NCBI GenBank assembly: GCA_902826775.1
Contig: CADEHE010000002.1
Location: 1 to 64,000, forward strand
DNA from: an uncultured Pseudomonadota bacterium
GTDB taxonomy: Bacteria; Pseudomonadota; Gammaproteobacteria; Burkholderiales; JALYOK01
DNA length: 64,000 bases
Direction: 5' to 3'
Numbering within the stretch: the stretch's first letter is position 1; every line of letters begins with the position of its first letter. The notes beneath the pieces are model-generated. The model was not told where the DNA came from and ran no database searches. It was given only the letters and a program-made list of their open reading frames with translations. The translations under genes and the position numbers were made by a program. This document shows, piece by piece, positions 1-17,498 of the stretch.

Positions 1-186
1 TTCGTCAGAAAAACTCTACTTGAAATCGGCTCAACTTTCCGAGGAGGCTTCAGATAGATCCAAATCATCTATGATTCCTTAGTTAGACGAGTATGCAACT
101 GAGAGTATTGGCGTTTTCCGGAGCACCGCTCGCGCCGCATCGATCTTGCGAGCGCTGGTTGCGCTCGGTAGCCGCTAGGAGAACGG

Positions 187-755: not shown

Positions 756-794
756 GCCCCGGTAGCTCAGTGGATAGAGCAACCCCCTCCTAAG
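756..794 (+). pseudogene. tRNA-Arg(CCU) 5' half, candidate attachment-site remnant
   Basis: Bases 756-794 match the 5' half of a proteobacterial tRNA-Arg(CCU): acceptor strand GCCCCGG, complete D-arm (GCTC-AGTGGATA-GAGC), the 5' anticodon stem ACCCC and the loop CTCCTAA. The match stops there. The 3' anticodon stem, T-arm and acceptor 3' strand are missing and were not seen elsewhere in the window. The anticodon loop is a common crossover point of tyrosine integrases, and accessory genes start directly behind the break, so it is probably one border of an integrated element. A functional copy must exist elsewhere if this tRNA is essential. Confidence 0.75.
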
Positions 795-1089: not shown

Positions 1090-2943
1090 TTACCCGATAA
1101 GCTCCATTGCCTTTAGATAGGGCGAGGGTCTGGCGGCACGAGCATCCCCCCAAGGCATCCTGCGAGACTTTGGATACGAGCAATAAAGAAGGCGCTTGGA
1201 TCTCGTTACCGCAACAAAGACATTTCGCCGTTCCTCCTCAAGCGCCGGCCCCTTTGCTCGGTAATCGGGGAAAATGCCCTCCGCCATCCCGACCAGAAAA
1301 ACGACTTCGAATTCCAAGCCTTTGGCGGAATGGACGGTCAGCAATGCGACACCCTCCGCGTTACGTTGCTGAGTAGTCCCGAGGGCAAGAGCGCTTAAAA
1401 AGCCGGAGATGCTCGGGTTTTGCGAGGATGCGCGAAGATAGGCATCCCACTCCTGAAGCAGGACCTCGGTGTCATCGTAGATGGCTTGACGTTCATCGTC
1501 TCCCTGTGAGTCAGCAAATCCCCTAAGGATGCGCACCGACGCCGTCATATCCAATCGCTGCGTGGCAGCGGACACAACCTTATCTAATGCCTCAACGCTC
1601 ACCGTCCAGTCCGATGTCTTCGCGTGGGATACGACTTGCCGTAAGTAACCAATGAGGCCGTGGTGATCGACCGGTGGCTCACTTTCGGTACTGACACCCC
1701 ATTTCTTGAGAAGCGCGGCGAGGTGAAATCTATCCTTCGGATTAGCGATTAGGCGCATTCCAAGTTGGAAACTTTCTACAACCTTAGATTCATTCTCGTG
1801 AATGACGGAGATCCGTTTGTGGAAAGGAATACCCACCTTCTTCAACGCGTTTTCGAAATGCAGAAGGACGAAACGAGTGCGGCCCAGGACCGCGCATCTG
1901 TTCCAGGAGATGGGTCCCTCTACATCCTGGTGGCCCTGCTTAGAAAGTGCTTCTAATTTCGCCACAACGAGAGATGCTTCGTTCTCCTCGTTTTCCCCAA
2001 CCAAGAGTCCCAACTCGCCAGCAATTGGCACTTGTCCGCTTACCGAATAGGTCTCTTGTAGCGATGACGCGGCTCGGACAATTGCCTTCGAACTCCTAAA
2101 GTTTTCTTTGAGCTCGATCGTCGCAGCACCGAACTCTTGCGCAAAACGATCCATAAACTTTGGACTCGCCGTATTGAACCCATAGATAGACTGCTTCGGG
2201 TCGCCAACCATCATGACGTTGTTGAATCCGTCGCCGCACATCGCAGTGAGAACTGCGTATTGAGCTTCGTTTAGATCCTGCGCCTCATCGATGCAGATGT
2301 ATTTGAAGAGACGGCGATAAAACTCAGCTACTTTGGGATACTCCGTAAGCAAGTGGTAGCTAAGCAGGAGTAGATCCTCAAAGTCATAGGCATCACACGC
2401 CCTGAGGCCGGCGTTGTACGCTTCCAGGATGCGTTGGTTGAGTTCCGAGTCTGCAAATGGCTGGGTGATTGGGTGCGCTTTAATCAGCGCGATACCTCGC
2501 AACCAACTATCAAGGGTTTGGTTTCTCGCCTTAGGGTCTCCCGACGTCATCAATTCTTCGGTCAGCAACGGGTCGGCCGCTACCGCCTCAATGAGGATGC
2601 CTTTGCGGTCAGACCATTGCTCGAACAACTGAGGAGAGCCGTTAACTCCAACGAATTTGCCTCGCTCAGAAAGCATAGTTAGACAGAATCCATGCAGGGT
2701 CCCAATGAAGGCTCGATCTAGGACGGAGCCTAGGTCTTGAAGGCGTTCCCGCATTTCATTGGCGGCCTTATTCGTAAATGTAAGAGCTAAGACCCGAAAA
2801 TGACCGGTTTCATTTACCAATCGACGGACGCGTTCTGTCAGTACCCTGGTTTTTCCAGAACCGGGGCCTGCAACGACCAACAATGGACCGTCGCCGTGAT
2901 TGACGACAAGCTGTTGCGTTTGAGACAGCCGAGCATGTGACAG
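1090..2943 (-). CDS. gajB: Gabija GajB-type UvrD/Rep-family helicase
   Basis: Superfamily 1 helicase that partners the OLD nuclease directly upstream. Visible motifs: Walker A AGPGSGKTRVL, motif II DEAQDLNEAQ, motif III GDPKQSIYGF, motif V HSAKGLEFEVVFL and motif VI VAVTRSKRLLY. An ATG- or GTG-based start would remove the N-terminal Q-motif region. Reading from a CTG at 2941-2943 restores LSHARLSQTQQLVV ahead of the Walker A, as in other UvrD proteins. That CTG sits 6 bases after a perfect AGGAGG that overlaps the end of gajA, so I choose it (617 aa). In Gabija, GajB is thought to sense or process DNA ends and activate GajA. Assignment rests on motifs plus adjacency; a generic OLD-UvrD pair is the alternative. 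Confidence 0.85.
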   Translation of the reverse strand: MSHARLSQTQQLVVNHGDGPLLVVAGPGSGKTRVLTERVRRLVNETGHFRVLALTFTNKAANEMRERLQDLGSVLDRAFIGTLHGFCLTMLSERGKFVGVNGSPQLFEQWSDRKGILIEAVAADPLLTEELMTSGDPKARNQTLDSWLRGIALIKAHPITQPFADSELNQRILEAYNAGLRACDAYDFEDLLLLSYHLLTEYPKVAEFYRRLFKYICIDEAQDLNEAQYAVLTAMCGDGFNNVMMVGDPKQSIYGFNTASPKFMDRFAQEFGAATIELKENFRSSKAIVRAASSLQETYSVSGQVPIAGELGLLVGENEENEASLVVAKLEALSKQGHQDVEGPISWNRCAVLGRTRFVLLHFENALKKVGIPFHKRISVIHENESKVVESFQLGMRLIANPKDRFHLAALLKKWGVSTESEPPVDHHGLIGYLRQVVSHAKTSDWTVSVEALDKVVSAATQRLDMTASVRILRGFADSQGDDERQAIYDDTEVLLQEWDAYLRASSQNPSISGFLSALALGTTQQRNAEGVALLTVHSAKGLEFEVVFLVGMAEGIFPDYRAKGPALEEERRNVFVAVTRSKRLLYCSYPKSRRMPWGDARAARPSPYLKAMELIG

Positions 2944-2946
2944 GGG

Positions 2947-4785
2947 CTACCTCCTGGTCAGTCCGAAATGCTTAGATATCTGTGCGAACAATTGTGCAAT
3001 AGTTGTGGGTACGCGACGGGCAGGTTCAGGCAGCGCCCCTATTGCTTCGGCAAGAGAGGTCGCAACATTCCCCTTGTAATTACGAAGAGCGTCTATGGCA
3101 GCCCTCTCACGGCCTCCGGTAGATGTGTATTCGCGAGTGTATTCAACTCCAGCCTTCTTTGGCCCTGGTTTTCCGTTTAGCTCTTTGATGTATCTATCAA
3201 GAAACCCCGGCCCGAGTACTTTGTCGAGGGCTTCTTCGATCTGCGGTAGGTAGCCGTCTCGAACAAGTTCGGCTTCGATGTCCCCTTTCTCGGGAATTAC
3301 CATTACCTCGGAGCGGGTCTTGTAGTCTGCTATTTCGATTTTTGCTAACGACGAGCTGAGCCCTTGGAGTGCAGCGTCTTCGCCGTCGGAGTAGATGAAC
3401 CACGGAATCCCAAAGCTCTCGGCAAGCCAGATGAATGGAAAGTAGTTGTGGCCACCCGCCCCAACAAAGCTAAAACCGAGTTCGTGGACAGTCTTGCCCC
3501 AATAGACTTTGGCCCAGATTGGGAACGCTAACTCCTCGGTAACGATACCCTCGTACAAGATCAAGGCTCGCGAGTACAGCAAGTCGCCTTTGCTCGCGAT
3601 AACCTGACGCTCCACAGCTCGCCGCTCTTCATCTGTGATCTTGGAAAGATCAAGCGCGGCGATGGTGCTTTCGCTTTTTGTGCGCACAACCAGACGGAGG
3701 TCGGCAAGTCCAGCTTGGCCGGATAGGTACGGCGAATGTGTACTGAGCAGGCGTTGGGCCGAGACCGTGGCAATTTGGTGAAATAGGGCTCTCTGGGCCT
3801 GAGGGTGTAGGTGAGCTTCCGGTTCTTCTAAGGCCAAAAAGGCGTGCACGGAGTCTCCTGTTGCCTCGGCTTGTTTCCTCTTCCAATCGACATAGGCCCG
3901 AAACACAAGAAGCGACGCAAGGCTTCGCGTTCCCATGCCATGCCTAGCCAAGGGGAAGGGCTGCGCGTCCGGAGTTGATAGAGTCACATCTACTCCGCGG
4001 GATAGATCTCGCAGCGTGCGCGGGACGGGTGAAATGCTGATACCGGCCTTGGACGAAGCGATAATGTCTTCGAGATCGACGAGGTTCCGGTGAATATGCG
4101 TGAGAACACCGCTCTTGGCGACCAATTCCTCATTTAGCTTGGTGAGTGCTGCCTCAAAGCTTTTTATCTCGGCATCGCTCAGCCCCAAGTCGTCCGTCAG
4201 TCGCCTCCAGAACGAGCCCCTTGCCCGGAGATCATTTTCCAAATCTCTTTGCGCGTCGATGTAAGAGACCGCAATTGGCTCGATCTGTGCACTCGTAACT
4301 GCATGCGCCTCCTCCGCGCTAAGCCAGTCTGCAAAGAGCTTCCAATCCTTTAGAAACTTCCTAGAGAGAGCATACTCGCTCCTCACCGGGTCCCACATTA
4401 ATGTCGTTCGAACTCCGACAAAGTCGTGTACTGCCGAGTCCTGCGCGATGCCTTGGCCCCAGAGCGCCGTCCAAAAACTACCCGCAGGAAACGAGTCCAA
4501 CGCCTCGCCATCTTTGCCGATGGGCTTGATCAGAACATCGATTACAGCCTTCCGTGTTTTAGGGAGGCTGATTTCGCCGATAGCGCTATAGATATCGTCA
4601 ATGCCTACCACCTTGCGACCGGTGCCGAGCGCAAGGCCTATTGCATCTAGGAGGTTTGTCTTGCCGGCGTTGTTGGCCCCCACAAGCAATGTGAGATCGC
4701 CCAGTCGTACCGACACGTTTCGGAATGATCGGAAGTTGCTAATGCGGAGCTCGACAACCGACACTCCGCTTGAAACGCCCGTCAT
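2947..4785 (-). CDS. gajA: Gabija GajA-type OLD-family ATPase/TOPRIM nuclease
   Basis: Overcoming-lysogenization-defect nuclease (612 aa from ATG 4785, preceded by GTGAGG; a GTG at 4797 is possible). The N-terminal ATPase has Walker A GANNAGKTN near residue 40 and Walker B/signature FLALEEPEAHLHP near residue 320. The C-terminal TOPRIM domain shows the acidic YEGIVTEELAFP and SDGED motifs near residues 420 and 470. The family nicks or cleaves DNA, and in Gabija the ATPase holds it inactive until nucleotides fall during infection. The helicase gene follows 3 bases after its stop, so the two form one operon. The 5' end is followed by about 230 bp without a supported gene. Confidence 0.87.
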   Translation of the reverse strand: MTGVSSGVSVVELRISNFRSFRNVSVRLGDLTLLVGANNAGKTNLLDAIGLALGTGRKVVGIDDIYSAIGEISLPKTRKAVIDVLIKPIGKDGEALDSFPAGSFWTALWGQGIAQDSAVHDFVGVRTTLMWDPVRSEYALSRKFLKDWKLFADWLSAEEAHAVTSAQIEPIAVSYIDAQRDLENDLRARGSFWRRLTDDLGLSDAEIKSFEAALTKLNEELVAKSGVLTHIHRNLVDLEDIIASSKAGISISPVPRTLRDLSRGVDVTLSTPDAQPFPLARHGMGTRSLASLLVFRAYVDWKRKQAEATGDSVHAFLALEEPEAHLHPQAQRALFHQIATVSAQRLLSTHSPYLSGQAGLADLRLVVRTKSESTIAALDLSKITDEERRAVERQVIASKGDLLYSRALILYEGIVTEELAFPIWAKVYWGKTVHELGFSFVGAGGHNYFPFIWLAESFGIPWFIYSDGEDAALQGLSSSLAKIEIADYKTRSEVMVIPEKGDIEAELVRDGYLPQIEEALDKVLGPGFLDRYIKELNGKPGPKKAGVEYTREYTSTGGRERAAIDALRNYKGNVATSLAEAIGALPEPARRVPTTIAQLFAQISKHFGLTRR

Positions 4786-6949: not shown

Positions 6950-7160
6950 CTATGGTACTCGCCTCGGAATACGCACGTTTATTAGATTATTTCTTATCTA
7001 CAGACTAATAGGATATACGGCCGCTCGCCTTTCAAACTTCGCCATACGCGCCATTGTTTCGCAGTACGCCGCCGAGTACACTTGATTAATCGCAAGCGCG
7101 TATCGCACGCACCGCTGCATGCAGGCTGCGGTTCAGCTGGCGGCACGAACGGACACTCTC

Positions 7161-7391
7161 ATGGACTCCCTGAATCGGATTACTCACGACCCCGCCGTGA
7201 TGGGCGGCAAGGCTTGCATCCGCGGCATGCGCGTTACCGTTGGTGCGATAGTGGGCATGATTGCTTCCGGCTATACGATCGATCAGGTGTTGGCCGACTA
7301 TCCTTACCTTGAGCGCGAAGATGTCCTGCAAGCCCTGCGCTATGCGGCTTGGCGAGCCGATGATCGCGAGGTTGCATTGACTGGCGCATGA
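7161..7391 (+). CDS. DUF433 antitoxin-like protein
   Basis: A 76-aa protein starting MDSLNRITHDPAVMGGKACIRGMRVTV, typical of DUF433 (VapB-type, winged-helix-like antitoxins). The pattern of Pro, Gly-Lys and Cys-Ile-Arg-Gly-x-Arg is intact. It overlaps the ATG of the DUF5615 toxin gene by four bases (ATGA), the usual arrangement of this toxin-antitoxin family. It should repress its own promoter, which I could not delimit. Confidence 0.82.
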   Translation: MDSLNRITHDPAVMGGKACIRGMRVTVGAIVGMIASGYTIDQVLADYPYLEREDVLQALRYAAWRADDREVALTGA

Positions 7392-7756
7392 AAATCGTTG
7401 TGGACATGAACTTGTCCCCGCGATAGATTGCGTTTCTGAATGCCGCAGGATTTGACGCGGTGCATTGGTCAAAGGTCGGTGCCGCAACGGCGCGCGACGA
7501 AGAGATCATGGCGTGGGCCGCCTCCGCAGATGCCATCGTGCTGACCCACGATCTCGACTTCAGCGCCATTCTTGCGTTCTCGAACAACAACAAACCCTCT
7601 GTAGTTCAAATCAGAGCCGAGGACCTCAATCCAGACAAGATTGGCGCCCACGTTGTTTCTGCGATCAATCAGACGCGATCCGAACTTGCGGCCGGCGCCA
7701 TCGTTTCTGTTGACCCCGTTCATGCTCGGTTGCGATTGCTTCCTCTGCAGCGGTAA
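7388..7756 (+). pseudogene. DUF5615 PIN-like toxin, interrupted by an amber codon
   Basis: Translation from ATG 7388 gives MKIVVDMNLSPR, then TAG at 7424-7426, then in the same frame IAFLNAAGFDAVHWS and the PIN-like core with THDLDF (a conserved acidic site). Relatives have SPRW at this point, so a TGG-to-TAG change is the simplest explanation. The remainder runs to TAA at 7754-7756 without further damage, suggesting a recent mutation. A product starting at a later codon would lack the N-terminal catalytic Asp. With the antitoxin intact, loss of toxin would be harmless to the host. Confidence 0.8.
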
Positions 7757-16218: not shown

Positions 16219-17475
16219 CTACATCCAACTGGAAGTCGGCTTGCGCTCAGTACCGTTCATGGTGCCGCGCAAATTACGCTCGGCGCCGGATGCTCGGCTC
16301 TCGAAGTGCCGCAAGCGCTTGAGCCAGTCGTCCACCACGCCCCAGAGCCGCTCCAGCACACGCGCACCCCAGCGGCGGCGCTGCCAGCTCGCGTGATCGA
16401 TTTCGACGCTATGTTGAAAATCGTCCTCGAACATTACCGCCATCTGCCGCGCCACGCGCGCGTCATGCGCCTCCTGGTTTGCTTCCAGATTCCAGCGCAG
16501 GTTCCAGTGATCCAAGTTGCTCGAACCGACCGATGCCCAGTCGTCGCACAACACTACTTTGGCGTGCATGAAGCGTGGCTGGTACTCATAGATGCGCACA
16601 CCATTCGCCAGCAAACCGGCAAAGAACCTGCGGCCGGCGTAACGCACCGACGGATGATCCGTATCCGGGCCGGGCAGCAGCAAGCGTACGTCGACGCCGC
16701 GCAGTGCGGCGCGGCGCAGCATGCGGCGCAGCTTGCGCGACGGCACAAAATACGCCGTTGCCAACCACACACGATGCTCGGCACGCGCGATGCGGGCGAT
16801 GACTGAGCGCGTGATCTCGTTGCGTACACGCGCGCCGCTGCTTGCCACGACTCTGCCCCATTGCCCGTCCGCGAAGGGCGGCGGTGGCGGCGTCGGCAGC
16901 ACGAGATTCTGCCCGCCGGCTTGGCTCCAAGTGGCGGCGAACAACGCCACCCAGTCCGCGACGACCGGACCTTCAATGGCCAGCATCGTTTCGCGCCACG
17001 GGCGTTGCCCGGACGCTTCGAAGGCGTCGGTGATACCGGCGCCACCCACAAACGCTTGCCGCGCATCGACAATAAGCAGCTTGCGATGATCACGCAGCAG
17101 ATTGCCCAGGCGCTTGCCGTGGTGCAGTACGTTGTAGAAGAGCAGGTCAGCGCCCGCTTCCTTAAGCCGCCGTTGATCACTGGGTTTGACTCTAATCGCG
17201 CCGAACGCATCCAGAAGCAGTTTGACGCTGACCCCGCGCGTGGCTGCTCTGCCCAGGGCATCAATAAACTTGGTAGCGACCGTGCCTGATTCGAACAGGT
17301 AGAACTCCAGCAGCACGAGTTGCTGCGCCTGTTCAATCGCGTGCAGCATTTTCTCGAAAAACACAGACCCATCGACCAGCAATTCGAATCGGTTGCCGGT
17401 GCGCCAGGGAAACAGATGCTTGGGGTGAGGTTTAGTAGTCAACGCCAAACCCTCATACGTGCATCGAATAAGCAT
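16219..17475 (-). CDS. clsB: Cardiolipin synthase, ClsB-type
   Basis: Phospholipase D superfamily protein (418 aa from ATG 17475) with both HKD motifs: HRKLLIVD in the first half and HAKVVLCDD in the second. The order and spacing match bacterial ClsB, which makes cardiolipin from phosphatidylglycerol and/or PE at the inner membrane. No N-terminal membrane helices, as expected for ClsB rather than ClsA. A TTG at 17496 would lengthen it by 7 residues but nearly touch the FNR-type box. Operon with the ACP-ligase-acyltransferase fusion. Confidence 0.88.
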   Translation of the reverse strand: MLIRCTYEGLALTTKPHPKHLFPWRTGNRFELLVDGSVFFEKMLHAIEQAQQLVLLEFYLFESGTVATKFIDALGRAATRGVSVKLLLDAFGAIRVKPSDQRRLKEAGADLLFYNVLHHGKRLGNLLRDHRKLLIVDARQAFVGGAGITDAFEASGQRPWRETMLAIEGPVVADWVALFAATWSQAGGQNLVLPTPPPPPFADGQWGRVVASSGARVRNEITRSVIARIARAEHRVWLATAYFVPSRKLRRMLRRAALRGVDVRLLLPGPDTDHPSVRYAGRRFFAGLLANGVRIYEYQPRFMHAKVVLCDDWASVGSSNLDHWNLRWNLEANQEAHDARVARQMAVMFEDDFQHSVEIDHASWQRRRWGARVLERLWGVVDDWLKRLRHFESRASGAERNLRGTMNGTERKPTSSWM

Positions 17476-17498
17476 GCCTGGCCGCCCCAATCCCAACT

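What the first reader, a model, noticed from the sequence alone, without database searches (positions are those of the whole stretch)
1090..4785. Gabija anti-phage module with a CTG-initiated helicase
An OLD/TOPRIM nuclease and a UvrD-like helicase lie in one operon, 3 bases apart. For the helicase, only a CTG at 2941-2943, six bases behind a perfect AGGAGG within the gajA end, gives a full N-terminus. Starting at the first TTG removes the residues before Walker A. A non-standard start would keep GajB low relative to GajA.
Basis: partly seen in the sequence, partly recalled or inferred. Interest (0 to 1): 0.55.

Follow-up and report, generated by a model that had tools for sequence, protein, structure and literature searches.

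The report
Gabija defence helicase starting at CTG
A bacterial two-gene anti-phage system of a known kind, carried near one end of what looks like a mobile DNA element, whose second gene seems to begin at a very rare start signal; the system is ordinary, while the rare start and an odd change in the first gene's active site are worth a bench test.

Summary
On the minus strand, gajA (4785 or 4797 to 2947) is followed after 3 bases by a 617-codon UvrD-like gajB whose frame holds no ATG, GTG or TTG before residue 21. A CTG at 2943-2941 lies 6 bases behind AGGAGG. PADLOC models match both proteins nearly end to end (GajA 1.5e-201, GajB 7.2e-226); the predicted GajA resembles solved GajA and the predicted GajB resembles UvrD/PcrA.

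Homology supports the CTG. In the 11 closest relatives examined a canonical start lies at aligned residues -2 to 2, and in five (three ATG, two TTG, all behind GGAGG) exactly at the CTG column. The TTG start would delete Gln10, invariant in 31 of 31. No relative needed a CTG.

'Keeps GajB low' is untested: published CUG initiation is about 0.9% of AUG in E. coli, while a characterised Gabija complex is 4:4; strong SD and stop-start coupling could compensate.

New here: GajA carries a one-residue insertion between the two Toprim glutamates (spacing +5 instead of +4, which 170 of 170 relatives have), and the pair lies about 300 bp inside one end of a ~120-kb putative ICE in tRNA-Arg(CCT).

The parts
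   Evidence: PADLOC PDLC00067 E=1.5e-201, residues 11-613; Pfam AAA_15 and OLD-like_TOPRIM; AF2 model pLDDT 89.8, VIA Z 22.2 to GajA 8x5i_D over 489 residues
3532..3552 (-). codons for EGIVTEE: Toprim glutamate motif with one extra residue relative to EGxxE
   Evidence: 170 of 170 relatives have the acidic residue at +4, the window at +5
2950..2955 (-). AGGAGG Shine-Dalgarno inside the last two gajA codons
2947..2949 (-). gajA TAG stop, 3 bases before the CTG; also the in-frame stop that bounds the gajB frame
2941..2943 (-). CTG, inferred gajB start codon
1090..2943 (-). gajB, UvrD/PcrA-like SF1 protein, 617 aa
   Evidence: PADLOC PDLC00132 E=7.2e-226, residues 5-614 of 617 on 3-624 of 625; Pfam UvrD-helicase and UvrD_C; AF2 model pLDDT 89.9, VIA Z 39.2 to UvrD over 575 residues
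2878..2883 (-). the two TTG codons (residues 21-22), rejected start
   Evidence: would remove L6 and Q10 and cut into the first core strand E21-25
756..794 (+). 5' half of tRNA-Arg(CCT), left attachment repeat of the putative element
   Evidence: identical 39 bp in the intact tRNA-Arg(CCT) at contig C2:120880
913..931 (+). paired TGTCCCAA sites 11 bp apart, likely integrase arm sites
   Evidence: the only copies in the window; the same pair, same spacing, at C2:120809 and 120820

Best explanation
This is a Gabija cassette of the Class 2 OLD plus UvrD-like type. GajA (ABC ATPase + Toprim nuclease) and GajB (complete SF1A fold) are probably made from one transcript. gajB translation starts at CTG 2943-2941, in the ancestral start column, after a single-base change from ATG or TTG. 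The ribosome is placed by AGGAGG at a good distance, and ribosomes ending gajA at the TAG three bases upstream are well placed to restart. Formyl-Met is expected at residue 1, so the Q motif is kept. The likely consequence is less GajB than an ATG would give, partly offset by SD and coupling; whether this is tuned, neutral or mildly harmful is open. Shown by sequence: frame, SD, position, homology, synteny. Inferred: use of the CTG in the cell, one transcript, coupling, yield, anti-phage activity.
For: Frame, SD and spacing. Start column: L222, L223 and L219/L126 use ATG, L221/L129 and L220/L131 use TTG at exactly residue 1, all with GGAGG just upstream; L224, L225, L226 (ATG) and L228 (GTG) start at -2, L007 and L008 (ATG) at 2. 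95 of 95 distinct GajA-GajB pairs have a canonical start within -10..14. Gln10 is invariant in 31 of 31 and Leu6 in at least 90%. Both proteins keep nearly all near-invariant residues: one deviation in 44 columns (GajA) and one in 47 (GajB). Literature: weak starts tend to go with stronger SDs, and 2 of 61,358 AUG and 1 of 2,468 UUG starts were reconstructed to have changed to CUG (PMC5622118, passages). A GajB form longer by five N-terminal residues was reported to have ATPase activity (PMC10681800, Discussion read).
Against: No relative with a CTG start was found, and CUG is only 0.024% of bacterial starts (PMC11497404). No transcript, ribosome or peptide data. No relative closer than about 59% in GajB, so the CTG rests on one assembly and a base error cannot be excluded. 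The SD and CTG are predicted partly paired, though folding is no stronger than shuffles (z -0.56). No promoter-like site was found for gajA on the minus strand in the scanned stretch; the one minus-strand site lies downstream of gajB.
Confidence: 0.83

Rival explanations
1. Decaying cassette: the CTG and the Toprim insertion are damage in a Gabija that is losing function, with GajB barely made.
For: Two changes at otherwise fixed functional points; longer GajA end branch (0.81) than the seven rows of its sister clade (0.078 to 0.33) in the tree; CUG is a poor start in E. coli reporters (PMC11497404).
Against: Both frames are open over 600 codons, near-invariant residues are kept in both, a strong SD is kept, and in Bp OLD the E404A single change had no discernible effect on cleavage (PMC6755086, passages). 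Another relative, L008, has a GajA end branch nearly as long (0.73), and the window's GajB end branch (0.48) is not unusual.
Confidence: 0.2
2. Base error in the assembly: the real codon is ATG, GTG or TTG.
For: One wrong base would do; only one assembly was seen, reads are not available, no second copy was found in viral contigs or plasmids.
Against: The genome is scored 99.5% complete with 0.04% contamination, and the surrounding frames carry no other sign of error.
Confidence: 0.12
3. TAG readthrough makes a GajA-GajB fusion, since the two frames are the same.
For: gajB is in frame with gajA across a single TAG.
Against: In relatives the two genes usually overlap out of frame (offset -4 in 34 and -1 in 14 of 95), so a fusion is not conserved; an SD at a good distance would have no purpose.
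Confidence: 0.03
4. gajB starts at TTG 2883 and yields a shortened GajB.
For: It is the first standard start codon.
Against: No homologue read starts there; it removes Q10 (invariant in 31 of 31) and cuts into the first core strand; the bases before it hold no SD-like stretch.
Confidence: 0.03

Closest known systems
Gabija (GajA-GajB), type example Bacillus cereus VD045
   Same: OLD nuclease with ABC ATPase and Toprim followed by a UvrD-like gene; GajA fold match over most of the protein
   Different: Low sequence identity (16%); GajB is 617 aa and closer to PcrA/UvrD than to the roughly 494-aa BcGajB; CTG start; shifted Toprim motif
Class 2 OLD nucleases of Xanthomonas and Burkholderia (6njv, 6nk8)
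   Same: The profile matches their C-terminal regions, profile positions 384-600 and 381-516; helicase gene downstream
   Different: Second Toprim glutamate at +5, not +4
UvrD/PcrA/Rep SF1A helicases
   Same: GajB model matches UvrD over 575 of 617 residues at Z 39.2, rmsd 3.3
   Different: Sits in an operon with GajA; the next best UvrD-like copy of the same genome is only 32% identical
GajAB of other genomes of the same order and phylum (L219-L226, L228)
   Same: 48-54% identical GajA and, where on the contig, 52-59% identical GajB; same gene order and N-terminus
   Different: ATG, GTG or TTG starts; no Toprim insertion

Membership tests
Gabija / Class 2 OLD system | OLD protein: N-terminal ABC ATPase plus C-terminal Toprim | tested here: met
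Gabija / Class 2 OLD system | UvrD/PcrA/Rep-like gene immediately downstream | tested here: met
   3 bases between the genes
Gabija / Class 2 OLD system | GajB similarity beyond generic helicase motifs | tested here: met
   PDLC00132 matched over residues 5-614 of 617; 95 distinct relatives have GajB linked downstream of GajA
Gabija / Class 2 OLD system | Toprim metal ligands (Bp OLD E400, E404, D455, D457, T506, E508) and K562 | tested here: inconclusive
   Counterparts of E400, D455, E508 and K562 are present as E412, D467, E504, K571 (ATG numbering; equivalences read by eye); the D457 place is Glu, as in many relatives; the E404 counterpart is moved from +4 to +5; geometry not measured
Gabija / Class 2 OLD system | GajA-GajB complex (4:4 in B. 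cereus) | not testable with these tools
   no complex was modelled
Gabija / Class 2 OLD system | Anti-phage activity | not testable with these tools
   needs plaque assays
CUG-initiated gene | No AUG, GUG or UUG before conserved sequence | tested here: met
CUG-initiated gene | SD at workable distance and start column shared with homologues | tested here: met
CUG-initiated gene | Met-initiated N-terminal peptide from the CUG | not testable with these tools
   needs proteomics or ribosome profiling
tRNA-integrated conjugative element (context) | Integrase, flanking att repeats, relaxase and T4SS genes | tested here: met
tRNA-integrated conjugative element (context) | Excision and transfer | not testable with these tools
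   needs excision PCR or mating

The most novel reading that the evidence does not exclude
Probability: 0.12. Interest if true: 0.55.

Novelty: new member of a known kind. Interest (0 to 1): 0.33.

Why it matters
Gene callers that allow only ATG, GTG and TTG would give this GajB without its Q motif. A small N-terminal difference was already discussed as deciding ATPase activity in B. cereus GajB (five residues; PMC10681800). If the CTG is used, the locus makes testable whether Gabija works with GajB well below GajA. [quoted passage not shown]

Tried and rejected
TTG start and readthrough fusion: rejected on homology and synteny (see rivals). Out-of-frame ATG 2936-2934: read by eye, its frame lacks the conserved L-S-x-x-Q; not pursued. 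Frameshift on the tandem AGG AGG codons: a +1 shift leads into that other frame, not gajB (read by eye). Motif rarity alone: not significant. Promoter scan: nothing above shuffles. RNA folding: no unusual structure. Close relatives to confirm the base: the family search held only the window's own genome; viral pattern scan 0; plasmid megablast 0. No CTG-start homologue in the loci examined. Other CTG-started genes of this genome: not tested. B. cereus GajB is absent from the 50 rows shown; this is not evidence against kinship. Loci dropped: of 198, 47 without a GajB match, 44 whose GajB match began after residue 12, 9 without a GajA match, 3 duplicates (95 kept). In one search the script preferred ATG, so L129 is listed with ATG at residue 12; one search shows TTG at residue 1. 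(84 pairs, looser cut) lists L058 without a start; one search shows its alignment begins only at residue 20. One search was loose: the control rang in 13 of 14 genomes, so only its top hits were used.

Full report
Observation. On the minus strand gajA ends with CTG ACC AGG AGG TAG, then CCC, then CTG TCA CAT GCT CGG CTG TCT CAA. The gajB frame is open from 2946 to 1090 and its first ATG/GTG/TTG is TTG 2883 at residue 21. The bare motif AGGAGG-N6-CTG is expected 0.28 times in such a window, so the case rests on homology.

Identity. PADLOC's GajA PDLC00067 (1.5e-201, residues 11-613) and GajB PDLC00132 (7.2e-226, residues 5-614) match nearly end to end. Pfam gives AAA_15 and OLD-like_TOPRIM, and UvrD-helicase and UvrD_C. 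A 30-row profile of GajA finds solved GajA chains and the C-terminal regions of Class 2 OLD proteins. The predicted GajA (pLDDT 89.8) matches GajA 8x5i_D at Z 22.2, rmsd 4.8, 489 aligned. The predicted GajB (pLDDT 89.9) matches UvrD at Z 39.2, rmsd 3.3, 575 aligned. It is closer to PcrA/UvrD than to B. cereus GajB by sequence too. That protein lacks the gating helix, GIG motif and separation pin of UvrD (PMC10681800, section read). In this group an MPWG stretch in a short C-terminal hairpin is widely kept and may be such a pin; that is my inference, and no helicase activity was shown.

Start codon. In one search, 198 loci outside the window's genome were examined: 95 gave distinct linked pairs with an alignable GajB N-terminus. 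All 95 have ATG, GTG or TTG (84, 6, 5 by the script's choice) within residues -10 to 14, and 82 within -3 to 6. Among the 11 closest relatives read base by base, five start exactly at the CTG column: L222, L223, L219 (the same locus as L126) with ATG; L221 (=L129) and L220 (=L131) with TTG. All five have GGAGG just upstream. L224, L225, L226 (ATG) and L228 (GTG) start three codons earlier, L007 and L008 (ATG) one codon later. Of L222 only the first codons of gajB are on the contig. Alignment A3 shows Gln10 invariant in 31 of 31 rows; the predicted model has helix 8-14 and the first strand at 21-25, so the TTG start would remove the Q motif. The GajA tree nests the window next to a mostly ATG clade, with TTG in a neighbouring pair, so ATG to CTG is the simpler history and TTG to CTG is possible; the GajB tree leaves the window's fork open.

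Effect on level. CUG makes up 0.024% of bacterial starts and gives 0.86% of the AUG yield in E. coli reporters (figures of Hecht et al. as cited in PMC11497404; I read passages, not the original). Weak starts tend to be paired with stronger SDs (PMC5622118, passages). B. cereus GajA and GajB form a 4:4 complex (PMC10681800, passages, Discussion; review PMC10568477, passages). A large shortage of GajB would thus be at odds with the known assembly. Stop-start arrangement is common in the family: 48 of 95 pairs have offsets of -4 or -1. Searches for print on a Gabija start codon (12 papers by listing only) and on CTG starts in operons (3 papers by listing only) showed nothing on this case; that is a limited search.

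A second oddity. The Toprim motif of GajA reads E-G-I-V-T-E-E (window 3552-3532). In 170 of 170 distinct relatives the motif is [ED]-G-x-x-[ED], the acidic residue at +4 (163 Glu, 7 Asp); the window alone has it at +5. In Bp OLD these are E400 and E404, in BcGajA E379 and E383 (PMC6755086 and PMC10822852, passages). E404A alone had no discernible effect on Bp OLD cleavage, while triple changes abolished it on linear DNA. Loss of nuclease function is therefore not implied. Other catalytic counterparts are kept. The GajA end branch is long (0.81) beside its sister clade (0.078-0.33), though L008 has 0.73. Decay remains a rival, but conservation elsewhere speaks against long decay: 1 deviation in 44 near-invariant columns for GajA and 1 in 47 for GajB.

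Context. The first 39 bases of tRNA-Arg(CCT) at 756-794 recur in an intact tRNA-Arg(CCT) at C2:120880. A tyrosine integrase gene lies just beside that copy (L215:1683-2765). A pair of TGTCCCAA sites 11 bp apart lies inside each end, at 913/924 and 120809/120820. Between them lie a TrwC relaxase, a VirB4-type ATPase, TrbI and TrbL. This fits an ICE of about 120 kb, with gajB ending about 300 bp from its left end.

Verdict. An ordinary Gabija by kind, with a well-supported but unproven CTG start and an unusual active-site spacing. The two changes deserve a short bench test.

Noticed in passing
window 756-794 and contig C2:120880-120918 (L215, L118): 39-bp 5' half of tRNA-Arg(CCT) repeated 120,124 bp apart with integrase, arm-like repeats, relaxase and T4SS genes between: putative ICE that seems to supply the tRNA's 5' half rather than the usual 3' half (the 'usual' is recalled).
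   Followed up: partly
window 3532-3552: One-residue insertion in the Toprim EGxxE motif of GajA, absent from 170 of 170 relatives.
   Followed up: yes
window 10215-51136: Cargo with chaperonin, LonB-like AAA protein, P-type ATPase, DNA polymerase beta-like thumb/HHH protein and ribonucleotide reductase: looks like a stress or energy-limitation island.
   Followed up: no
window 16219-17496: PLD-domain protein with weak DrmC-like PADLOC matches (best 2e-14); probably a generic PLD enzyme.
   Followed up: partly
window 7119-7756: Two small adjacent ORFs that look like a DUF433/DUF5615-type antitoxin-toxin pair (names recalled from the sequence; no PADLOC match).
   Followed up: no
L128 (genome G739): A GajA relative whose match contains one in-frame TGA, perhaps a broken Gabija.
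   Followed up: no
L221/L129, L220/L131, L228: Weak TTG and GTG starts in 3 of the 11 closest gajB relatives.
   Followed up: partly
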